DNA of 64,000 bases from a virus: positions 1-64,000 of the IMG/VR virus record IMGVR_UViG_3300046092_000205, one strand, 5' to 3'. Below are positions 7,882 through 30,410 of the stretch, piece after piece (the first letter of the stretch is position 1; each line of letters begins with the position of its first letter). The translations under genes and the position numbers were made by a program. The notes beneath the pieces are model-generated. The model was not told the DNA's origin and ran no database searches. It worked only from the letters and a program-made list of their open reading frames with translations.

Positions 7882-8948
7882 ATGGAATATAAAAAATACT
7901 ACTGGTTAAATGATAAGTCCCGCGAATTCCTCACTAGAGGATATGTAAGGGACGGACAAACCGCCGAACAGAGAGTTCGTGAAATTGCAGAGGCGGCAGA
8001 GAAATACCTTGGAATCGAAGGATATGCTGATAAATTCGAGGATTATATGTCTCGCGGATGGTTTAGCCTTTCATCTCCATTATGGGCTAATTATGGCCTA
8101 AAAGAGGCTTGCCATGTTCATGCAATGGCTCTTACATTGAAGATACGATGGATTCAATCCTCACTAAAGTTGGTGAGCTTGGAACAATGGACAAGCATGG
8201 CGCTGGAACATCTGCTTTCTTTGGGGCATTAAGAGAAAGGGGTGCGGAGATTTCATCTGGAGGTTCGTCTAATGGGCCAGTTCACTTTATGGAATTGTTC
8301 GATAAAGTTACGAGCGTAATTTCTCAATCAAATGTGAGACGCGGATCAATGGCCGCGTATCTCCCAGTAGATCATCCTGATATTCTTGAATTTTTAAAAA
8401 TCAAATCAGAGGGTAATCCAATCCAAGATTTAAGCATCGGAGTTTGCATTTCTGATGAATGGATGGAAAGTCTCCTTAATAAGGATAAGGATAAGCTAAA
8501 AATTTGGGGCGAAATTATCAAAAAGCGCTTTGAGAGTGGCTATCCGTATGTATTTTTCACTGGAACAGCCAATAAAAATGCACCAAAAGTTTACAGAGAT
8601 AAGGGCATTAAGATTCATGCTAGCAATCTTTGCGTGACAGGAGATACCTTAATTGATGTTTTAATTGATGATGAAGCTTTTCAAATAAAAATCGAAGAAC
8701 TTGGCTTTTACCTAAAAAAACACAAAAATATTAAAGTTAAGTCTTTTGACGTAGAAACCGAAAAAGAAGTTTTCTCTGAAATTCTTGATTTCGCTCAAAC
8801 TGGAGAGTCGGAGGAACTCTATGAAATTGAAGATGAAAATGGAAACGTAGTTAAATGCACTGGGAATCATAAGATTTATACGCAAAATAGAGGTTATGTA
8901 GAAGCTCGTCTTCTAGAAGAAACTGATATTTTAGTTAACGCAAAATAA
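7882..8948 (+). CDS. nrdA: NrdA N-terminal part, -1 frame change, ending in an N-intein
   Basis: Class I ribonucleotide reductase large subunit, first half. The initial frame (from 7882) codes the N-terminal region through SLSSPLWANYGLK. From about 8103 the reading continues in the -1 frame as RGLPCSCNGSYIEDTMDSIL, which carries the first redox cysteine region. A single -1 shift on the A-run at 8098-8104 joins the frames; otherwise the first frame stops at 8232. The extein ends at IHASNL. From Cys (8631) to the stop follows a 105-residue N-intein. The catalytic rest is made by a separate gene at 9820 and must be added by protein trans-splicing. Without both events no active NrdA forms. The alternative explanation for the frame change is a missing A in the assembly. 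Confidence 0.88.
8098..8104 (+). other. Frame-change site in nrdA (CTA AAA G)
   Basis: The zero frame reads CTA AAA GAG. Homology requires K followed by RGLPCSC, which is read by slipping one base back on the A-run. An AAA codon preceded by A and followed by G can slip on its own, but the full X XXY YYZ heptamer is absent. No obvious downstream pseudoknot was traced. It could be programmed frameshifting or a one-base homopolymer error. Confidence 0.6.
8631..8945 (+). mobile_element. N-terminal half of a split intein (NrdA)
   Basis: Begins with the nucleophile Cys (CVTGDTLID, block A) directly after the extein ASNL. Block B is seen as VVKCTGNHKIYTQN, which carries the TxxH motif. It ends after VEARLLEETDILVNAK and a stop codon, with no endonuclease domain and no C-terminal splicing block. 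The partner C-intein is at 9820-9918. The insertion is immediately before the conserved active-site Cys of NrdA. Confidence 0.9.
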
Positions 8949-8949
8949 A

Positions 8950-8983
8950 GTGTAATCTCTAAGCACAGGTAGTGCTTAGAGAT
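8950..8983 (+). promoter_or_regulatory. Late-type promoter motif plus hairpin ahead of the homing endonuclease
   Basis: GTGTAATC (8950-8957) resembles the GTGTAAAT late motif. A perfect 12-base inverted repeat overlaps it: left arm ATCTCTAAGCAC (8955-8966), loop AGGTA, right arm GTGCTTAGAGAT (8972-8983), ending directly at the endonuclease ATG (8984). From the motif spacing in other genes, transcription would start near 8964-8966, so a late transcript would lose most or all of the left arm and could not form the hairpin. Read-through nrdA transcripts would form it and hide the start codon region. This is the logic known for T4 I-TevI; here it is inferred. Confidence 0.6.
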
Positions 8984-9823
8984 ATGAATTACAAAAAAAT
9001 ACATGACAAATTTGTTGAATATATAAAAACAACTAGACCAAGGCAAAGATTAATTAGCAGAAATCCACTAGATGAGAGATTGCAAAACCGCTTTATCTAC
9101 ATAGAAATTCATCATATTATTCCGCGCTCTCTTGGTGGCTTAGATGATGAAAAAAACTTAATAGAACTTCTTCCAGAGGAACATATTTTTATTCACATGC
9201 TTCGTTATAAAATTTTTAACAAAAGGGAAGATATGCTCGCTATAAGATTCATGCTTAATGGATTTGATAGCTCTAATCGTACCAAGGGAGCATTTAAACT
9301 CGTATTGAATAAAAAAATAAGAATGGGATACGCATGGATTAGAACTCATGCCCAACTTTTTCGTGAAACAAAAGGATGGCAAACAAAAGAAGGGATAAAA
9401 AGAATTTCAGAGGCAAGAAAAGGCACAATGCCAGTTAGAGACTTAGAAAGTGGTAAGATCGTAGGTTCAGTTTCCACTGATCATCCGAATGTGCTTTCTG
9501 GCAAATGGGTACATCACTCGAAAGGCAGGAAGCAATCTCAAAAAGAAATAGAAAAAAAGAGAATAAGACAGACTGGACAAAATAATGCAAATGCATCTGG
9601 GTTAAGTGATGAATATTTTATTCAGAAAGGCGTTGAAGTTTCTGGTATTTTTGATAGAATTCTTTCGTGGGGAAATATGTTAATTCTTTCAGAAAGGGAT
9701 GGATTCAAATGGATTAAAAGCTTTAAAAGTAGATTTGGCGGAAAAGGGTTAAAAGAATACTATCGTTTAGTAGAAGAGAGAACGGGAAAAAAATTTGACA
9801 ATACAAAAAGATTTAAACTATGA
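8984..9823 (+). CDS. HNH homing endonuclease in the nrdA break
   Basis: Free-standing homing endonuclease, 279 residues, lying between the two split nrdA genes. The HNH domain is near the N terminus: YIEIHHIIPRSLGGLDDEKN followed by LIELLPEEHIFIHMLRYKIF, with the HH, N and distal H metal and catalytic positions. The middle and C-terminal parts are basic and rich in KGRKQS-type segments, like NUMOD DNA-binding modules. A frame extends to a GTG at 8972 inside the hairpin arm; the ATG at 8984 is chosen. The stop overlaps the ATG of the C-terminal nrdA gene (ATGA), so that gene may be translated by coupling from this message. Confidence 0.85.
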   Translation: MNYKKIHDKFVEYIKTTRPRQRLISRNPLDERLQNRFIYIEIHHIIPRSLGGLDDEKNLIELLPEEHIFIHMLRYKIFNKREDMLAIRFMLNGFDSSNRTKGAFKLVLNKKIRMGYAWIRTHAQLFRETKGWQTKEGIKRISEARKGTMPVRDLESGKIVGSVSTDHPNVLSGKWVHHSKGRKQSQKEIEKKRIRQTGQNNANASGLSDEYFIQKGVEVSGIFDRILSWGNMLILSERDGFKWIKSFKSRFGGKGLKEYYRLVEERTGKKFDNTKRFKL

Positions 9824-9918
9824 TTAAAATTAAAAAATATAAACATTCAGAGCCAGTATATGACATTACAGTGGAAAAAACTAAAAACTTTTTCGCCAAT
9901 AATATCTTGGTTCACAAC
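9820..9918 (+). mobile_element. C-terminal half of the NrdA split intein
   Basis: A 33-residue C-intein. Block F is VYDITVEKTKNFFANNILV, block G is VHN, followed by the +1 nucleophile Cys of the extein. The initiator Met is supplied by the ATGA overlap with the endonuclease stop. Its length is typical for natural C-inteins. Confidence 0.9.
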
Positions 9919-10821
9919 TGCAATGAAATAAGTTTGTCGTCCGATAAAGATTCTTCATTCGTATGTGTTCTTTCTTCCATTAATTTACTTCATTGGGATG
10001 AACTAAAAGATACTGATGCTATTGAAACAATGACGTATTTTCTCGATACCGTTACCGAAGAATATATCAAGAAAACAAATGGCGTAAAATTCATGGAAGC
10101 TGCGAATAAATTCGCTAAAGAACAACGCGCAGTTGGACTTGGTGTTCTTGGATGGCACTCTTATCTTCAAAGCAAAATGATTTCTTTTGAGAGCATGGAA
10201 GCCAAAATGCTTAATTCTCAAATTTTCTCGACCCTAAATAAAAAATCTTTAGCGGCGAGCAAAGAGATGGCTATCAAATATGGCGAACCAGAACTTCTCA
10301 AGGGCTATGGAGAGAGACAGGTGACGCGACTTGCTGTTGCCCCAACAACGAGTAGCTCATTTATCCTTGGACAAGTATCTCAAGGAATTGAACCTCAGAA
10401 TTCAAACTATTATGTAAAAAAACTGGCAAAAGGTTCCTTTACATATAAAAATCCCTATCTAAAAGACCTCCTTGAAAGTAAGGATAATGATAGTCAAGAA
10501 ATTTGGAAAACTATTCTTGAACGCGGCGGTTCTGTTCAGCATCTTGAATTCTTGTCTCAAGAAGAAAAGGATGTGTTTAAAACATTTGGAGAAATTTCTC
10601 AAAAAGAAATTGTTATTCAAGCCTCTGCTCGTCAAAAACATATCGACCAATCTCAGAGCTTAAACTTATCCCCTCATCCAGATACAACAATCAAAGAAAT
10701 GAGTCAGCTTATGATCTTTGGTTGGCAGCAAGGAGTAAAGGGTTATTATTACCATCGCAGTTCAAATCCAAGTCAAATGCTGGCTAGAAATTTACTTCAA
10801 TGCCAGAGTTGTGAAGCGTGA
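9820..10821 (+). CDS. nrdA: C-intein fused to the NrdA catalytic and C-terminal part
   Basis: The first 33 residues are a C-intein ending ANNILVHN; the next residue, Cys, begins the C-extein CNEISL. This Cys corresponds to the thiyl-radical cysteine of class I NrdA (E. coli NLCLEI). Further NrdA landmarks: VCVLSSINL (second redox Cys region), GLGVLGWHSYLQ, APTTSSSFILGQVSQGIEP, the tyrosine pair in GVKGYYYHRS for radical transfer, and the C-terminal CQSCEA swinging-arm cysteines. The 300 extein residues complete the protein begun at 7882. A rho-independent terminator follows at 10922. Confidence 0.93.
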   Translation: MIKIKKYKHSEPVYDITVEKTKNFFANNILVHNCNEISLSSDKDSSFVCVLSSINLLHWDELKDTDAIETMTYFLDTVTEEYIKKTNGVKFMEAANKFAKEQRAVGLGVLGWHSYLQSKMISFESMEAKMLNSQIFSTLNKKSLAASKEMAIKYGEPELLKGYGERQVTRLAVAPTTSSSFILGQVSQGIEPQNSNYYVKKLAKGSFTYKNPYLKDLLESKDNDSQEIWKTILERGGSVQHLEFLSQEEKDVFKTFGEISQKEIVIQASARQKHIDQSQSLNLSPHPDTTIKEMSQLMIFGWQQGVKGYYYHRSSNPSQMLARNLLQCQSCEA

Positions 10822-23108: not shown

Positions 23109-24187
23109 TGTCCTTACAAATAACTCAATCAGCTAGCAAAGTTAAAACAGCATTAGGTTGCTCTTGGAAATACTACAGTAGTTACCTTTTGCACATTCCA
23201 TCACGCTCCAACAATGGAGCGAAAGTCGGGGGTAATGTCCACATCATTCTTGAGTGCCTTGCTGTTGACAAAAGAAAAGCGCTAGTTCAAAAAATTCTTG
23301 AAGCTAAAGATATTTTTGTTAGCCAAAGCATTAGACATTTAACTTATAAACTAGCGCGTAAAAACGATACTGATACGCCAGAAAATATTGAAAAGGTTAA
23401 AGATTTTGTATTGAATGGTTTGTCTTATGATTTCTATGGAAATCTTCGTGAAAACTTAGCTCATTCTTATACAGAAAAAGATTTCTTATTCGAAGAGCCA
23501 GAGAAATATAAGATCAGGGGATTTATTGACCGCCTCTTTCTTTATGAAGACGGTCATGCTTTAATTAGAGATTATAAAACGAGCAAAGAAACTTATCGAG
23601 GCTCCGATATTAAAGATCCACTGCAAGCAAACTTCTACGCAAAAGCTGTTAGAAAAATGTCAGACGCAGGAATTATTCCTCCCGTTAAAACTATCAGTTG
23701 TGAGTTTCTTTTTCTTAAGTTTGATTGCTCTTTGGAATCGGAATGGGCAACAGGAGAGTATCAAGGGAAAGTCACAAAAAAACAGTATCACAATGGTGGA
23801 GGTAAAATCACTGTAAATTTCACAGAGGAAGAAATTGATGGGTTTGATTATGAGCTAGAGGATTACCAACAATATCTTGAATCTTTTGATGAAGAAAAAG
23901 CTACTGAAAATTTTGCTGTAGATCAAGGTATGCCATCTGATGATTCTTTTTCTGGTAAACTATTGTGTGGTTTTGGAACTTATGCTGGCCAACTTAAAAA
24001 AGATGGCACGTTAATGTTTTCCTGTGAGGCCCGTCACCCATTCCCCTATTATTATATCGAAAAAGATGGCCAATGGATTGCATCTTGTTTTATTGATGAA
24101 CGCGAAAAGCTCTTGACAAAGTATCCTATTGAAGTATATTTATGGACAGAAAAATTCTACAGCGGCTGTCTGCGCCATCAAAAATAA
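23108..24187 (+). CDS. RecB/Cas4-like PD-(D/E)XK nuclease
   Basis: A 359-residue nuclease of the PDDEXK_1 family. SASKVKTALGCSWKYYSSYL matches the N-terminal SxSxxxxxxxCPxxYxY motif. GGNVHIILECLA gives the GxxxH motif. KIRGFIDRLFLYEDGHALIR with DYKTSKE supplies the D and ExK-type DYK active site. LQANFYAKAV is the QxxxY motif. Two later Cys (FGTYAG region and MFSCEARHPFP) may form part of an iron-sulfur site with Cys 18, as in AddB/Cas4, but this is uncertain. It probably resects DNA ends for RecA-type recombination. Its 3' end contains the next promoter. Confidence 0.82.
   Translation: MSLQITQSASKVKTALGCSWKYYSSYLLHIPSRSNNGAKVGGNVHIILECLAVDKRKALVQKILEAKDIFVSQSIRHLTYKLARKNDTDTPENIEKVKDFVLNGLSYDFYGNLRENLAHSYTEKDFLFEEPEKYKIRGFIDRLFLYEDGHALIRDYKTSKETYRGSDIKDPLQANFYAKAVRKMSDAGIIPPVKTISCEFLFLKFDCSLESEWATGEYQGKVTKKQYHNGGGKITVNFTEEEIDGFDYELEDYQQYLESFDEEKATENFAVDQGMPSDDSFSGKLLCGFGTYAGQLKKDGTLMFSCEARHPFPYYYIEKDGQWIASCFIDEREKLLTKYPIEVYLWTEKFYSGCLRHQK
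24113..24140 (+). promoter_or_regulatory. Early promoter inside the nuclease gene
   Basis: TTGACA (24113-24118), 16 bases, TATATT (24135-24140), inside the coding sequence of the RecB-like gene. A short frame (ATG at 24142) follows at once, then the PHP-domain gene at 24189. Confidence 0.55.
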
Positions 24188-24192
24188 AATGA
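24142..24192 (+). CDS. Possible 16-residue leader peptide
   Basis: Reading frame MDRKILQRLSAPSKIK, out of frame with the nuclease gene. It starts one base after the promoter -10 element, probably upstream of or at the transcript start, and its TGA overlaps the ATG of the PHP gene (ATGA). If the transcript includes the ATG it could couple translation into the polymerase gene. Evidence is positional only. Confidence 0.25.
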   Translation: MDRKILQRLSAPSKIK

Positions 24193-24929
24193 TTCCACTC
24201 TTCAAGTCTACTTACTCCCGCAAGAGCATACTCACTCTTGATAAACCATCACCACCAAACTCTGGCCCAGATTCAATTCTTTCCATTGCCAAAGACTACA
24301 GCTTGGATCAAATAGTTTTAGTGGAGGATGAGTTCACTGGCTTTAAAACTGCACTTGACAGATGTAAAGAATTGGGTATTAAATTGATTTTTGGCATCCG
24401 TTTCAATATCTGCAATGATAGGATGGCGGAGGATAAAAAGTCATCAAATCATAAATTAATCGTTTTCGCTAAAAATGACAATGGCGCAAAGCTTTTGATG
24501 AAACTCTATTCTTTAGCGTTTTCTGAGTCAGAAGGTTTTTTAGACTGTATGACTTTAAAAGATAAATGGTCGCCAGACTTAGCCCTTGCAGTTCCATTTT
24601 ATGATTCATTTATGCATCGTAATTCTTTTTACTTCCAGACTTGTATTCCAGATTTGGGGTTCGCAGCGCCCACATTATTCTTGGAGAATAATGGTTTACC
24701 TTTTGATGAAAAACTTCGATCTAAAGTATTTAAATTAGCCGAAGAAAATAATTGGCTCACCAAGGAAGCGAAAACCATTTACTACCGCAATAAAAAAGAC
24801 TACGAATCGTATGTCACGTATCGTATCATAACTGGTCGAATTGGCGGTAAGAATCAAACCTTAGATAAACCCGAATTGGAGGATATGTCTAGTAATGAAT
24901 TCAGTTGGGAAAGCTTTGTGGAAAAATAA
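24189..24929 (+). CDS. Separate, degenerate PHP domain of DNA polymerase III alpha
   Basis: A 246-residue protein that corresponds to the N-terminal PHP domain of DnaE, here encoded apart from the polymerase core. FKSTYSRKSILTLDKP and LDQIVLVEDEFTGFKTALD, then LGIKLIFGIRFNICND follow the PHP pattern. However, the His/Asp metal ligands of active PHP domains (the HxH near the N terminus and the TDHG motif) are replaced, so metal-dependent activity is unlikely. A structural role in polymerase assembly is inferred. The frame opens at 24129; the ATG at 24189 begins the domain, just after the nuclease stop. Confidence 0.7.
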   Translation: MIPLFKSTYSRKSILTLDKPSPPNSGPDSILSIAKDYSLDQIVLVEDEFTGFKTALDRCKELGIKLIFGIRFNICNDRMAEDKKSSNHKLIVFAKNDNGAKLLMKLYSLAFSESEGFLDCMTLKDKWSPDLALAVPFYDSFMHRNSFYFQTCIPDLGFAAPTLFLENNGLPFDEKLRSKVFKLAEENNWLTKEAKTIYYRNKKDYESYVTYRIITGRIGGKNQTLDKPELEDMSSNEFSWESFVEK

Positions 24930-25900: not shown

Positions 25901-26533
25901 ATGAACATTATTCAAGTAGATAAAAAAACAGCCGATCACTGGATAACTCAAAAACATTATTCTCGTCGCGCATCTATTTTCTGGGCAGCATTCGGATTGG
26001 AAATTAATGGTAAACTTGAAGGCGTTGTGGTTTATGGTCAACCATCTCCACCTATTCAAAAGCACGCATTTAAAGATCGTGATTTTCGTTTGTATGAACT
26101 TTCGCGTTTAGTAATCCAAACAAAAGAAAAGAACGCGGCAAGTTTCTTGATTGGTAATTCGCTCAAGCTGCTAGAGAAACCATGTGCTGTCGTATCTTAT
26201 GCGGATAGCGAATGGAATCATTGCGGATTCGTTTATCAAGCTACAAATTGGCTGTATACTGGAGCAACAAAGTCTCACGATCATTCTTATATGGTAAACG
26301 GAGAAAGACTTCACCCAATGACCATTAGGGACAGATTTGGGGTTACTAATTTAAAGCAATGGGCAAAAGAAAATAAAATACAAACCATTAAACCTGCCGA
26401 AAAACATCGCTATTTTTATATCTGCGGAAACAAGCGAGAAAAAAAATCTATACTTGACAGACTGAACTATTCGGTGTTAAGTAGTTATCCAAAAATCAAT
26501 CCATCTCGATACAACGACGGCGACACTATTTAA
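25901..26533 (+). CDS. Mom-like DNA adenine hypermodification protein
   Basis: A 210-residue GNAT-fold protein of the phage Mom family, which in phage Mu converts adenine to a carbamoylmethyl form and blocks restriction. Features: QKHYSRRASIFWAAFGLEI near the N terminus, GVVVYGQPSPP, YELSRLVIQTKEKNAASFLI (the conserved ELSRL segment), VVSYADSEWNHCGFVYQATN followed by WLYTGAT, and a late RYFYICG. It lies inside the polymerase operon, so modification may be linked to replication. No Com-like regulator is apparent. Which adenine context is modified cannot be told from sequence. Confidence 0.8.
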   Translation: MNIIQVDKKTADHWITQKHYSRRASIFWAAFGLEINGKLEGVVVYGQPSPPIQKHAFKDRDFRLYELSRLVIQTKEKNAASFLIGNSLKLLEKPCAVVSYADSEWNHCGFVYQATNWLYTGATKSHDHSYMVNGERLHPMTIRDRFGVTNLKQWAKENKIQTIKPAEKHRYFYICGNKREKKSILDRLNYSVLSSYPKINPSRYNDGDTI

Positions 26534-26534
26534 T

Positions 26535-28304
26535 ATGTTTGAAGAATTCCAATCACTAAATAAACCATTACTCGCGGGAGTTCGGCTTCCAAAAATTTCT
26601 ATTGAACCACGCTTCTATGAGCAATTAGAAGTTTCGCCAAAGGTTTCCAATTATGAATTTTTACGCCGCCTTTGCTGGAGGGGTATTAAAAAATTGGGAA
26701 TCGACAAGAAATCAAATGCCAAAGAATATTACGAGCAAGTCAAAAAAGAATTGACCACCTTTGAAGAGCTTTCTTTCACAGATTATATTCTTCTCAATTG
26801 GGAGATCCTCAACTTTTGCCATGAAAAAAATATCCCAACAAATGCTGGTCGAGGTTCTGCTGGCTCATCATTAGTTTTGGCTCTTATCGGAGTTACAAAA
26901 ATTGATCCCTTTGAATACAAGCTCTTCTTTGAGAGGTTCGTTTCCAAAAGTCGAGCCAAGAAAATTATTGACGATGGAATAACCTATCTTGATGGATCAC
27001 TAGTTCCAGACGTTGACAATGATATTGATTACAGTCGTCGTCATGAAGTAATGTCTTTCATCGAGGAGAAGCATAGAGGACGCACATGCAAAATCCTTAC
27101 ATTGAATACTCTTAGTGGAAAACTCTGCATTAAAGAGGCTCTCAAAATTGTTGATGGAGTTAATGAGGATATTGCGAATGCTGTTTCAAATTCTATTCCA
27201 AAAAAGTTTGGAAAGGTTTTGGATTTTGAAGATGCAATTAAAGAAAGCCCAGCTTTTGCTCAATACATCAAGCAGTATAGTCGCTCTTACGAAGTGGCTC
27301 TTAAGCTGGAAGGATTGATTAAAAACACTGGCGTTCATCCATCTGGAATCGCTATCTGCCATGATGATCTTGATGATACAATGCCGTATGGAAGAACAAA
27401 AGATGGCGACCTTATTTCTGGATTTGAAATGAATGACGTTGCATCAGTAGCAATTAAGTTTGATATTCTTGGGCTAAGAACACTAACAGTTTTAGACCAA
27501 GTTTGCAAAATGACAGGACTGGTTCTTGAAGATATTGATAAAGACGATAAAGAAACATATCAATTCTTGCAGAACTTAATTGCTCCTCAAGGCTTATTCC
27601 AGATTGAAACCGATACTGGATTTAGAGTTTGTCAAAAAGTGCGGCCTAAAAACCTACATGATTTATCTGCTGTGTTAGCAATTGCGCGCCCTGGGGCTTT
27701 GGCTTTTGCGGATCAATATGCAAAGTTTTCTAATACTGGTGAGGTAACAAGTATTCACCCATTCTTTGATGACATTCTAGGTTGGACAGGATCAATTCCT
27801 CTATACCAAGAACAGTTGATTGCAATGGCCCGTAAAATTGGGTTCACCGCTGATGAAGGCGAGCAACTGAGGCGCATAGTTGGCAAAAAGAAAGTCGATC
27901 AGATGAAAGAGTGGCGCGAGAAGATCCAATTAAAAATTCAAGAAAATAGTCTTGATACAAAAATTGGAGAAATCTTATGGAAAGTTGCTGAGGACTCTGC
28001 GAATTATAGCTTTAATGCTTGCCTTTCTCCAGAAACCGTTGTTCAAAAAGAATCTGGATTTGACTGTCTTTCCAATATCAAAAAAGGGGACAAAGTGTTG
28101 GCTTATGACGTAAAAAATAAGAAAGACCATTTTGTAGAAGTTGTTGATATTCATCCTAATTTTGTAGAGCTATTTAAGATTGAATTTGAAGATGGAAGGA
28201 TAATCGAATGTTCCATGGATCATAAATTTCTCTGCGAGGACGGAAAAATGAGGGCGATGAAAAATATATTGAGAGGTAATCATAGTATTGTGTGTAAAGA
28301 TTAG
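26535..28304 (+). CDS. dnaE: DNA polymerase III alpha core, first part, ending in an N-intein
   Basis: Residues 1-495 are the DnaE polymerase core without PHP domain: NAGRGSAGSSLVLALIGV (about 103-120), the catalytic LVPDVDNDIDYSRRHEV (two Asp, residues 159-163), IKFDILGLRTLTVLD (third Asp, about 310), GLFQIETDTG, IARPGALAFADQYAKF and GEQLRRIVGKKK. The extein ends NYSFNA. Residues 496-589 are an N-intein and then a stop. The remaining fingers, HhH and OB regions are encoded at 29229 and must be joined by trans-splicing. This is the replicative polymerase of the phage; no PolA or PolB type gene is seen in the window. Confidence 0.92.
   Translation: MFEEFQSLNKPLLAGVRLPKISIEPRFYEQLEVSPKVSNYEFLRRLCWRGIKKLGIDKKSNAKEYYEQVKKELTTFEELSFTDYILLNWEILNFCHEKNIPTNAGRGSAGSSLVLALIGVTKIDPFEYKLFFERFVSKSRAKKIIDDGITYLDGSLVPDVDNDIDYSRRHEVMSFIEEKHRGRTCKILTLNTLSGKLCIKEALKIVDGVNEDIANAVSNSIPKKFGKVLDFEDAIKESPAFAQYIKQYSRSYEVALKLEGLIKNTGVHPSGIAICHDDLDDTMPYGRTKDGDLISGFEMNDVASVAIKFDILGLRTLTVLDQVCKMTGLVLEDIDKDDKETYQFLQNLIAPQGLFQIETDTGFRVCQKVRPKNLHDLSAVLAIARPGALAFADQYAKFSNTGEVTSIHPFFDDILGWTGSIPLYQEQLIAMARKIGFTADEGEQLRRIVGKKKVDQMKEWREKIQLKIQENSLDTKIGEILWKVAEDSANYSFNACLSPETVVQKESGFDCLSNIKKGDKVLAYDVKNKKDHFVEVVDIHPNFVELFKIEFEDGRIIECSMDHKFLCEDGKMRAMKNILRGNHSIVCKD
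28020..28301 (+). mobile_element. N-terminal half of a split intein (DnaE)
   Basis: A 94-residue N-intein starting CLSPETVVQ (block A, nucleophile Cys) after extein SFNA. KKGDKVLAYDVKNKKDHF is typical of the region between blocks A and B, and block B is IIECSMDHKFLCEDG (SxxH in place of TxxH). It ends at IVCKD and a stop. Its last codons contain the GTGTAAAG promoter of the next gene. The partner is at 29229-29342. Confidence 0.92.
28292..28299 (+). promoter_or_regulatory. Late promoter motif inside the N-intein
   Basis: GTGTAAAG, 14 bases ahead of the endonuclease ATG (28306). The same variant occurs ahead of the tail tube gene. It is written into intein codons for V-C-K-D. Confidence 0.6.
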
Positions 28305-28305
28305 T

Positions 28306-29265
28306 ATGGCCATCATTGAATATAGCGATAACAAAAAAATCATACCTCAATCAGCATTTGAAACTTGCTTAATTTCTGGGAAAACAAAAACTCAAATTTC
28401 GAAAGAGTTTAGGGGAAGGGAAAATGGAGTCTATTACTTAGATAAATTTGCAAATAATTTAAAAGGCTACGATATTTCTGTTAAGGAGTATGTTTGCCGA
28501 TTCTTAAAAATTGAATGGCCAAAATGTCCAGTATCAAATGAAGACGTAGGATACCTCATCCGAGGTAACGGCCTTATTTTTAGCTTATTTAAGAGAGGAA
28601 GGGTAAACAAAGAACATTGCGAGGCATTTAGAAAAGGATGCGAAAAACTCTCCAAAGATAGAGTGGGGGAAAATAACCCAATGTTCGGCAGGGATTCGTG
28701 GAATAAAGGTCTTTCTATCGAAGACGAAAGAGTAAGAAAAATGGCGGAAAAAACTCGTGGGAGAAAAGCCTCGCAAGAAACGAGGGAAAAGCAGAAAGCA
28801 GTTAGAAAAAATCATCCACTCAAAGCTAGGCACACTCAAAAACATAGTGAAGAAAGCAAGAATAAATGCAGAGAAGCCACTGCGAAAGGTTGGGCAAATG
28901 GGCGATTTAATAAAAAAACTTCTATCGAACAGAAAATGGAGGACTTTTTAAAAACGCTCCCCCTAAAAGAAGATTTCATTTTTCAGTTTCAACACGGTTA
29001 TTTTACTCTTGACTTTGCGTTTCCGAATGCTAAAGTGGGTATCGAGTGTCAAGGTGGATTTTTTCACACCGACCCTAGATTATACCCAAATGGTCCAAAA
29101 ACAAAAATACAAGAAAGAAATCTCGTTAGAGACATTGAGAAAAGGAAGTATTTTTCCTCAGAAAACTGGCAAACAATAGAGTGCTGGGAAATTGAAATAA
29201 ATAATAATAAATTTAAAGAAGAAATTATATGCGCTTTGCAAAAATTAAATCTGCTACAAGAATAG
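28306..29265 (+). CDS. Vsr-like homing endonuclease in the dnaE break
   Basis: Free-standing homing endonuclease of 319 residues. The C-terminal catalytic part contains KVGIECQGGFFHTDPRLYPN and later LVRDIEKRKYFSSENW and TIECWEIEI, the E-x-Q/H-x-D/P pattern of the Vsr-like endonucleases known from fractured, split-intein-bearing genes. The middle has NUMOD3-type repeats (NPMFGRDSWNKG, RGRKASQETREKQK) for DNA binding. The frame opens at 28288; the ATG at 28306 lies right after the N-intein stop. Its last 37 bases overlap the C-intein gene in another frame, so it could be co-translated with it. Confidence 0.85.
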   Translation: MAIIEYSDNKKIIPQSAFETCLISGKTKTQISKEFRGRENGVYYLDKFANNLKGYDISVKEYVCRFLKIEWPKCPVSNEDVGYLIRGNGLIFSLFKRGRVNKEHCEAFRKGCEKLSKDRVGENNPMFGRDSWNKGLSIEDERVRKMAEKTRGRKASQETREKQKAVRKNHPLKARHTQKHSEESKNKCREATAKGWANGRFNKKTSIEQKMEDFLKTLPLKEDFIFQFQHGYFTLDFAFPNAKVGIECQGGFFHTDPRLYPNGPKTKIQERNLVRDIEKRKYFSSENWQTIECWEIEINNNKFKEEIICALQKLNLLQE

Positions 29266-29342
29266 GAAAGAGAAGTACGTTGGATTTAGAAGTCGATCAT
29301 AAAGATCATAACTTTTATGCGGAAGGACTAGTCACGAGCAAT
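29229..29342 (+). mobile_element. C-terminal half of the DnaE split intein
   Basis: A 38-residue C-intein: block F LDLEVDHKDHNFYAEGLV and block G TSN, followed by Ser +1. The penultimate Ser instead of His is the same as in cyanobacterial DnaE split inteins (ending in SN), but the +1 residue is Ser, not Cys, and the site is three residues later. Confidence 0.92.
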
Positions 29343-30410
29343 TCACATTCTTATTGCTACGGGGTGACTAGTTTTTATACAGCCTACTGCAAAGTTCATT
29401 ATCCACAGGAATTTTTCCTTGCATTATTGAAGATGGCTCAAAATGAACCCGATCCGCTATCCGAAATTTTCAAAATCTCCCAAGAGCTTGCTCTATTTGG
29501 AATCAAACTCTTACCTCCTGACCTTTCTAAGTCTAAAGAAGAGTTTTCCATTGAGGGTAAAGACCTCCGCTATGGATTGAATTCGATCAAAGGTGTTTCA
29601 GAAAAGAGCATTCAAAACCTATTAGACTTTCGCGGTCAAGAATTCTCAAATAAATATCAAGTATTCCAATCGGCCAAAGATTGTGGATTGAATATTGGTA
29701 TTGTTTGCACATTGATTCAGGCTGGATGCCTAGATTCTTTTGGGGAGAATCGTTGCAAAATGGTTCTTGAAGCTCAAATGTTTAGCAAGCTCACGGAAAA
29801 AGAAAAACTCTCTGTTTTAGAACTTGGAGAGCATCATAAGTATGATATTTTTGCCGCCTTAAAAGATGGCGCTGATGGCAAAATACTTAATGATAAAAAT
29901 AAAAGCACATTCACCGAAAAGCGAATCCAAAAACTTCGCGAGGAGCATGGCAAATATAAACAAATCTATGATCAAAATATCAAACACCAAAAATTCTGTA
30001 ATTGGTATTTCGAGCGCGAAATGTTGGGGTATTCATATTCGTATACATTAAGAGAAGTGTTTGAAGAGCCGAAGAGCGCATTTACTTCAATTCTAGAATT
30101 TAATTCTCTCGACGACAACACGTTAGTTCGTATTGTTGGAGTCGTGACCGAAGTGAAAAAGACAACATCTAAAAAAGGTAATAAATACATGATGCTAGAC
30201 ATTTCTGATGAGAGCGGTAAGCTATCTGGAATGTTTGGAGATAACGGCAAAGATAATAAATGGTCGCGTCATCTTGAAGAAAAGCTACCAGTTCCACAAG
30301 AGGATTCTATAGTTACAGTGGTAGGAAAGAAATTCGGAGATTTGCTTATGGTAGATAAGTTCTCAATTATTGATGAGAAAATATATACTCGCCTATCGCA
30401 AATAAAATAA
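29229..30410 (+). CDS. dnaE: C-intein fused to the C-terminal part of DNA polymerase III alpha
   Basis: Residues 1-38 are a C-intein ending EGLVTSN. From Ser 39 the extein SHSYCYGVTSFYTAYCKVHY followed by PQEFFLALL continues the DnaE core (compare the standard FNKSHAxAYxxxxYQTAxLKAxYPxEF). Then come the helix-hairpin-helix region (DLRYGLNSIKGVSEKSIQNL), an insert with many charged residues (about 190-260), and an OB fold (VRIVGVVTEVKKTTSKKGNK, then YMMLDISDESG). Together with the gene at 26535 it makes a polymerase without the PHP domain. Confidence 0.92.
   Translation: MRFAKIKSATRIGKRSTLDLEVDHKDHNFYAEGLVTSNSHSYCYGVTSFYTAYCKVHYPQEFFLALLKMAQNEPDPLSEIFKISQELALFGIKLLPPDLSKSKEEFSIEGKDLRYGLNSIKGVSEKSIQNLLDFRGQEFSNKYQVFQSAKDCGLNIGIVCTLIQAGCLDSFGENRCKMVLEAQMFSKLTEKEKLSVLELGEHHKYDIFAALKDGADGKILNDKNKSTFTEKRIQKLREEHGKYKQIYDQNIKHQKFCNWYFEREMLGYSYSYTLREVFEEPKSAFTSILEFNSLDDNTLVRIVGVVTEVKKTTSKKGNKYMMLDISDESGKLSGMFGDNGKDNKWSRHLEEKLPVPQEDSIVTVVGKKFGDLLMVDKFSIIDEKIYTRLSQIK

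What the first reader, a model, noticed from the sequence alone, without database searches (positions are those of the whole stretch)
26535..30410. Fractured dnaE: second split intein in the same phage, three residues from the cyanobacterial DnaE site
The polymerase core ends SFNA and continues as a 94-residue N-intein. A Vsr-like homing endonuclease gene follows, then a C-intein ending TSN joined to SHSYCYG. In cyanobacteria the DnaE split intein sits before the C of CFNKSHS; here the break is between FNA and SHS. Either the site moved or two lineages converged on the same conserved loop. Two fractured essential replication genes in one phage is, to my knowledge, very unusual.
Basis: partly seen in the sequence, partly recalled or inferred. 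Interest (0 to 1): 0.92.

Follow-up and report, generated by a model that had tools for sequence, protein, structure and literature searches.

The report
Phage polymerase gene split by intein
In this uncultured phage the replicative DNA polymerase is made as two pieces with a probable gene-homing nuclease gene between them, and a split self-splicing protein should weld the pieces together; the arrangement proves to be common in uncultured phages and arose separately from the famous split polymerase of cyanobacteria.

Summary
dnaE is cut after ...ANYSFNA. A 94-aa N-intein, a homing-endonuclease gene (28306-29265) and a 38-aa C-intein ending ...TSN precede SHSYCYG. The halves are exactly complementary, the splicing residues are present, and a second contig carries the same arrangement. 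nrdA is also split, by another intein with an HNH gene. One correction: the site lies four, not three, residues from the cyanobacterial DnaE site.

This is an ordinary 'fractured gene' (split intein plus EDxHD/Vsr-like nuclease). It is neither a relocated cyanobacterial intein (AU test rejects, p=0.007) nor rare. FNx^SHS is a busy intein site: all 115 viral contigs found by a junction pattern carry inteins there. I resolved 42 distinct fractured viral loci. Between the halves lie EDxHD-like, LAGLIDADG, zinc-finger/DUF559-like or GIY-YIG genes, or nothing. One close relative has the same split intein with a different nuclease, and one contiguous intein keeps what looks like a nuclease scar. Most close relatives have an empty site.

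Trans-splicing is very likely but untested. Dassa 2009 could not be read, so whether fractured DnaE was already listed there is open. The most novel lead is chromosomal dnaE split at this site in Acidobacteriota, apparently dispersed in Chloracidobacterium as in cyanobacteria.

The parts
24129..24929 (+). PHP domain of DnaE as a separate gene (accessory; not part of the fracture). The listed TTG start may not be the real one.
   Evidence: Pfam PHP 1.2e-6; TIGR00594 positions 24-113; separate in all 71 testable relatives
26535..28019 (+). DnaE N-extein: polymerase core and most of the fingers, 495 aa, ends ANYSFNA
   Evidence: Pfam DNA_pol3_alpha 1.8e-53, DNA_pol3_finger 2.1e-31
28020..28304 (+). 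N-intein, 94 aa (CLSPETVV...SMDH...CKD) plus stop TAG
   Evidence: TIGR01445 6e-4, Intein_splicing 6.5e-4; alignment with 18 other inteins
28306..29265 (+). Free-standing homing endonuclease gene, 319 aa: NUMOD3 plus EDxHD/Vsr-like catalytic domain; ATG one base after the N-intein stop
   Evidence: family profile hits 3r3p 2e-6 and 1cw0 6e-5
29229..29342 (+). C-intein, 38 aa, ends LVTSN; its ATG lies inside the 3' end of the endonuclease gene (37-nt overlap)
   Evidence: TIGR01443 above cutoff
29343..30410 (+). DnaE C-extein, 355 aa (SHSYCYG...): rest of fingers, HhH, OB fold
   Evidence: Pfam HHH_6 1.3e-19; TIGR00594 from position 749
8631..8948 (+). N-intein of the second fractured gene, nrdA (after KIHASNL)
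   Evidence: TIGR01445 6.6e-8, above cutoff
8972..9823 (+). HNH endonuclease-like ORF between the nrdA halves
   Evidence: Pfam HNH 3e-4, just under its gathering score
9820..9918 (+). C-intein of nrdA, 33 aa (...ILVHN^CNEIS)
   Evidence: TIGR01443 3.8e-9

Best explanation
This is a fractured dnaE gene. The phage makes Pol III alpha as two proteins. Each carries half of a split intein; the halves associate and trans-splice, excising 94 + 38 residues and joining ...YSFNA to SHSYCYG... into an uninterrupted polymerase core. Cys1 attacks first, transesterification goes to Ser+1, and the terminal Asn cyclises, helped by a penultimate Ser as in cyanobacterial DnaE inteins. The gene between encodes an EDxHD/Vsr-like homing endonuclease with NUMOD DNA-binding parts. 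By inference it cuts intein-less dnaE at the conserved FNK-SHS codons, so that repair copies the whole N-intein/nuclease/C-intein block into the cut allele. The split intein makes the insertion harmless, and the nuclease can later be exchanged or lost. Shown: gene anatomy, complementary halves, conserved splicing residues, family membership of intein and nuclease, empty sites in relatives, nuclease exchange. Inferred: that splicing occurs, that the nuclease cuts, that the block homes.
For: Exact complementarity of the halves on TIGR00594 and PHROG 405, and a gapless junction against 2hpi. Splicing residues intact in the window and across 42 distinct split loci: residue 1 C27/S14/T1, block B T32/S9/A1, penultimate S36 (Asn and Ser+1 were partly search conditions). 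Orthologous fractured dnaE with 44-51% identical nuclease in L334-L338. 74 of 80 nearest DnaE relatives have an empty site. The nuclease family profile hits I-Bth0305I (3r3p) and Vsr structures. L191: same split intein (IN 36/94, IC 27/38 identical) but a GIY-YIG ORF on the other strand. Extein, intein and nuclease distances covary (Mantel r 0.75-0.81, p 1e-4). Charge split of natural split inteins: IN mean -8.5 and IC first 16 residues +3.2 in the split set, against +1.8 and -0.05 in contiguous ones; window -2 and +6. No Rfam intron in 24-33 kb.
Against: No expression, splicing or cleavage data. The window's N-intein is only weakly anionic (-2), and block B has Ser instead of the commoner Thr. 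The window's nuclease departs from the family consensus (EVDGDYFH) at ECQGGFFH; L334 shares the Q, so it may be a subfamily trait, but activity is uncertain. The nuclease hits Vsr models only weakly on its own (E 1.4e-3) and no PDB chain alone. Higher intein than extein identity between distant phages fits horizontal spread but may be a floor effect.
Confidence: 0.85

Rival explanations
1. The intein is a cyanobacterial DnaE split intein (Npu/Ssp type) acquired by the phage and shifted a few residues.
For: Same gene, same loop, both split, both with penultimate Ser. Npu DnaE is the next-best PDB match after gp41-1.
Against: Tree: the cyanobacterial-site inteins, including true viral ones L327 and L328, form a 100/100 clade without the window; AU rejects joining them (p 0.007 and 9e-5). 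Contiguous inteins occupy the FNK^SHS site on their own in Rhodococcus phages and many bacteria.
Confidence: 0.04
2. The two DnaE halves work unspliced as a two-chain polymerase; the intein pieces are decaying remnants.
For: This viral clade already keeps the PHP domain as a separate polypeptide, and a nuclease-split ribonucleotide reductase that works as two peptides is mentioned in PMC10448857.
Against: Both intein halves keep their splicing residues over dozens of diverged loci, and the C-half ORFs begin with the C-intein. Empty-site relatives have one continuous core ORF.
Confidence: 0.06
3. Group I intron or assembly artefact rather than an intein-split gene.
For: EDxHD nucleases also live in group I introns (PMC3943268).
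Against: No Rfam match. Both halves are in-frame with intein blocks. The same arrangement is on a second contig and in many independent contigs.
Confidence: 0.02

Closest known systems
Fractured genes (Dassa et al. 2009, NAR 37:2560; known to me from its title and abstract, full text not held)
   Same: Split intein interrupting a replication gene, free-standing homing-endonuclease gene between the halves, Vsr-like nuclease family, phage setting.
   Different: Host gene dnaE at FNx^SHS. I could not check whether DnaE is among that paper's enzyme types.
Cyanobacterial split DnaE intein (Ssp, Npu)
   Same: Same protein and loop; naturally split; penultimate Ser/Ala instead of His.
   Different: Site four residues upstream with Cys+1; separate clade; halves far apart with no nuclease gene.
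Contiguous DnaE inteins at the same site (Rhodococcus phages Grayson, Peregrin, Weasels2, Trina; Thermus; Planctomycetes; Omnitrophota)
   Same: Identical insertion site FNK^SHS.
   Different: One polypeptide; roughly 120-460 aa, often large enough to hold an internal nuclease; mostly other clades.
I-Bth0305I (EDxHD homing endonuclease, PDB 3r3p) and Vsr
   Same: Catalytic-domain homology (E 2e-6 and 6e-5); NUMOD-type DNA-binding extensions.
   Different: Not in a group I intron; lies between split-intein halves.
gp41-1 split intein (PDB 6qaz)
   Same: Best single solved relative (46.9 bits); lies inside the split FNx^SHS group on the tree, though on a long branch.
   Different: Different host protein; ends HN rather than SN.

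Membership tests
Fractured gene with split intein | Conserved coding region broken in two at one point, halves complementary | tested here: met
   TIGR00594 749/749; PHROG 405 793/793; gapless 2hpi junction
Fractured gene with split intein | Intein N- and C-parts fused in frame to the two exteins with splicing residues | tested here: met
Fractured gene with split intein | Free-standing endonuclease gene between the halves | tested here: met
   28306-29265
Fractured gene with split intein | Trans-splicing of the halves | not testable with these tools
   Needs expression
EDxHD (Vsr-like) homing endonucleases | Sequence homology to I-Bth0305I/Vsr catalytic domain with conserved acidic and His residues | tested here: met
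   Family profile vs 3r3p 2e-6, 1cw0 6e-5; invariant D236, E247, H254, D276, W294-E295. Window alone weak
EDxHD (Vsr-like) homing endonucleases | Cleaves the intein-less allele | not testable with these tools
   Empty sites exist in relatives
Cyanobacterial-type DnaE split intein | Insertion before C of CFNKSHS, Cys+1 | tested here: not met
   Inserted before SHS, Ser+1
Cyanobacterial-type DnaE split intein | Same clade as Ssp/Npu | tested here: not met
   AU p 0.007 and 9e-5

The most novel reading that the evidence does not exclude
The FNx^SHS loop of DnaE is a homing hot spot where split inteins act as stable platforms on which unrelated endonuclease genes are swapped, lost or fused, and from which split dnaE genes become dispersed. 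Acidobacteriota chromosomes show the series: LAGLIDADG-like ORF between the halves (L240, L276, L280), an unrelated gene between them (L211), halves on different contigs beside unrelated genes (Chloracidobacterium, L262/L419 and L266/L418). The cyanobacterial split dnaE would then be one case of a repeated route rather than a unique event.
Probability: 0.45. Interest if true: 0.82.

Novelty: new member of a known kind. Interest (0 to 1): 0.58.

Why it matters
It shows that essential phage polymerases are probably often assembled by protein trans-splicing, and supplies about 40 natural split inteins at one site, 14 of them starting with Ser, useful for splicing tools. It also gives the long-standing question of how cyanobacterial dnaE became split a set of apparent intermediates that can be tested: fractured with nuclease, nuclease exchanged, nuclease lost, re-fused with a scar, dispersed.

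Tried and rejected
AlphaFold model of the endonuclease (and later): queued, never finished; the profile search against PDB sequences was used instead. Dassa 2009 and Caspi 2003 are not held, so novelty of DnaE as a fractured gene stays open. Single-sequence phmmer of the endonuclease against PDB: none. Identity comparison as proof of horizontal transfer: between clades N-extein 32.1%, IN 38.9%; within the window clade 65.3 and 52.4; suggestive only, because inteins may saturate. A third fracture at the PHP domain was rejected: clade-wide gene separation without intein. The 113-row tree stayed at quick level; the 49-row careful tree is the one relied on. Test C (all viral split plus cyanobacterial-site inteins as one clade) was rejected too but excludes L037 and bacterial split rows by design, so it is not leaned on. 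Npu, Ssp and the first residues of gp41-1 were supplied from memory; the Npu and gp41-1 ones agree with the PDB alignments.

Full report
What is there. The window is 64 kb of a 76,495-bp IMG/VR virus record, a tailed phage by its tape-measure gene. dnaE lies in a replication block. Its polymerase core (26535-28019) ends AEDSANYSFNA and runs straight into a 94-residue N-intein that stops at 28304. One base later the ATG of a 319-aa ORF begins (28306). Inside the 3' end of that ORF, at 29229, starts a second dnaE ORF: a 38-residue C-intein ending LVTSN, then SHSYCYG and the rest of the polymerase to 30410. The two halves meet at the same profile position in two model sets (TIGR00594 749/749; PHROG 405 793/793), and the spliced sequence aligns to Thermus Pol III alpha without a gap at the junction. 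A second IMG/VR contig, under a different sample number, is 99.98% identical over 10.3 kb. nrdA (7882-10821) is also fractured, with an HNH ORF between its intein halves.

Offset. Cyanobacterial DnaE inteins interrupt Y^CFNKSHS; here the break is YSFNA^SHS, four residues further on.

Is the site known to inteins? Rhodococcus phage Grayson gp103 carries a contiguous intein of about 150 aa at FNK^SHS, and Peregrin, Weasels2, NiceHouse and Trina give the same kind of match. A junction pattern (Asn directly before SH[SA]... of DnaE) found 115 IMG/VR contigs, and every one shows an intein C-terminus there. The pattern for the cyanobacterial site found only five viral contigs.

How common is the fractured form? 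Of the viral contigs with a resolvable N-half, 37 were split; with those found through the nuclease and through DnaE, 42 distinct split loci were tabulated. One of them (L063) is a poor fit on the tree and may not belong. Between the halves lie: (A) relatives of the window's nuclease (phmmer E below 1e-21 for the nine; further loci L334-L351); (B) zinc-finger/DUF559-like proteins; (C) LAGLIDADG proteins (PF14528, 1e-7 to 1e-10); (D) one 667-aa ORF without a Pfam match; or only a short gap of about 150-230 nt. L191, whose DnaE N-extein is 65% identical to the window's over 200 aa, has the same split intein (IN 36/94, IC 27/38 identical) but a GIY-YIG ORF on the opposite strand. So the nuclease gene is exchangeable while the intein halves stay. 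L037 is a contiguous 148-aa intein nested among split ones; its linker QRRIIHGHTGCSHSTEK matches the conserved stretch KKRxIHGHTGxKHSEE of nuclease family A, which reads as a re-fusion leaving a nuclease scar. L334 has Cys instead of Ser at +1.

The nuclease. Alone it hits NUMOD3 (1.8e-4) and Vsr (1.4e-3) weakly. A nine-member profile hits 3r3p, 'Mobile intron protein', which I take from my own knowledge to be I-Bth0305I, at 2e-6, and Vsr structures at 6e-5 to 1.5e-3. Invariant D236, E247, H254, D276, W294 and E295 fit a Vsr-like active site. PMC3943268 describes EDxHD as a homing-endonuclease family using NUMODs. All five closest nucleases (L334-L338, 44-51%) sit in fractured dnaE like the window's; where the N-extein is on the contig it belongs to the window's own polymerase clade.

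Ancestry. In the 49-row careful tree of IN+IC (133 columns) the window is sister to L338 (97/89), inside a 17-row group of FNx^SHS split inteins (96/93); Npu, Ssp and two viral cyanobacterial-site inteins form a 100/100 clade elsewhere. Holding the window clade and the cyanobacterial clade together is rejected (AU p 0.007; window alone 9e-5). Thus neither 'the site moved' nor 'acquired from cyanobacteria': two lineages sit at neighbouring sites in the same conserved loop. gp41-1 is the best solved relative (46.9 bits). Of the 80 nearest DnaE relatives 74 have an empty site (one of the two search patterns favours uninterrupted sites, so the share is biased upward), so presence is patchy, as expected of a mobile block. 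Extein, intein and nuclease distances covary over 18 units (r 0.75-0.81, p 1e-4). Between distant clades the intein is more alike than the extein (38.9 against 32.1%), the reverse of within the window clade (52.4 against 65.3); this hints at lateral spread, but saturation could also give it.

Likely function. Residues for class 1 splicing are present: Cys1, block B SMDH, block F DHNF, Ser-Asn^Ser. PMC5874633 notes that cyanobacterial DnaE inteins also have Ser or Ala where most have His. Natural split inteins associate by an acidic IN and a basic IC (PMC11766414). The split set here shows that charge pattern relative to contiguous inteins at the same site (MWU p 8e-8 for IN, 2e-4 for the start of IC), with the reservations that relatedness and nuclease sequence in the first 110 residues of the large contiguous inteins contribute. 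The window follows it mainly through IC (+6 in 16 residues; IN only -2). The polymerase break falls in the fingers, so an unspliced enzyme would most likely be inactive (inference).

Bacterial parallels. In Acidobacteriota MAGs (L276, L280) and a Chloracidobacterium MAG (L240) chromosomal dnaE is fractured at this site with a LAGLIDADG-like ORF (read by eye) between; in Blastocatellia L211 a different gene (Uma2-like by eye, not scanned) lies there. In two Chloracidobacterium genomes the C-half follows metabolic genes (L262, L266), while the N-half is on another contig (L419, L418). Contigs are not closed, so dispersal is strongly indicated, not proven. No held paper joins Chloracidobacterium with split inteins.

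Verdict. The finding is real and correctly anatomised. The wider set (nuclease exchange, scar, bacterial dispersal) is what raises its interest. Whether DnaE was already listed among fractured genes in 2009 could not be checked.

Noticed in passing
L262, L266 (C-halves) and L419, L418 (N-halves), Chloracidobacterium MAGs: dnaE split at FNx^SHS with the two halves on different contigs next to unrelated genes, a parallel to cyanobacterial split dnaE at another site.
   Followed up: partly
L276, L280, L240, L211: Acidobacteriota chromosomal dnaE fractured at the same site, with a LAGLIDADG-like ORF (L276, L280, L240) or another gene (L211) between the halves.
   Followed up: partly
L328, L325, L326 (viral contigs): True cyanobacterial-site split dnaE in viruses: L328 has a structural-looking (LamG-like by eye) ORF between the halves; L325 and L326 have C-halves with no N-half next to them.
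   Followed up: partly
L037, viral contig IMGVR 3300001533_003623: Contiguous 148-aa intein whose linker carries IHGHTG..HS, the conserved motif of the nuclease family: apparent re-fusion of a fractured gene.
   Followed up: yes
window 8091-8110: nrdA N-part is broken by a one-base frameshift near a run of four A; the frame changes from LSSPLWANYG to GLPCSCNGSYIED. Probably an assembly indel, otherwise a damaged gene.
   Followed up: partly
window 25901-26533: A Mom-family DNA modification gene (Pfam Mom 6e-35) sits between the exonuclease gene and the dnaE core.
   Followed up: no
window 24129-24929 and relatives L126-L204: In this viral clade the PHP domain of DnaE is always a separate gene, about 0.9-3.7 kb upstream of the core; Rhodococcus phage Grayson also has it as a separate gene.
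   Followed up: partly
L274, L215, L261, L315 (Rokuibacteriota/Methylomirabilota): A divergent long-branched group of contiguous inteins at the same DnaE site, apart from the other bacterial ones on the 113-row tree.
   Followed up: no
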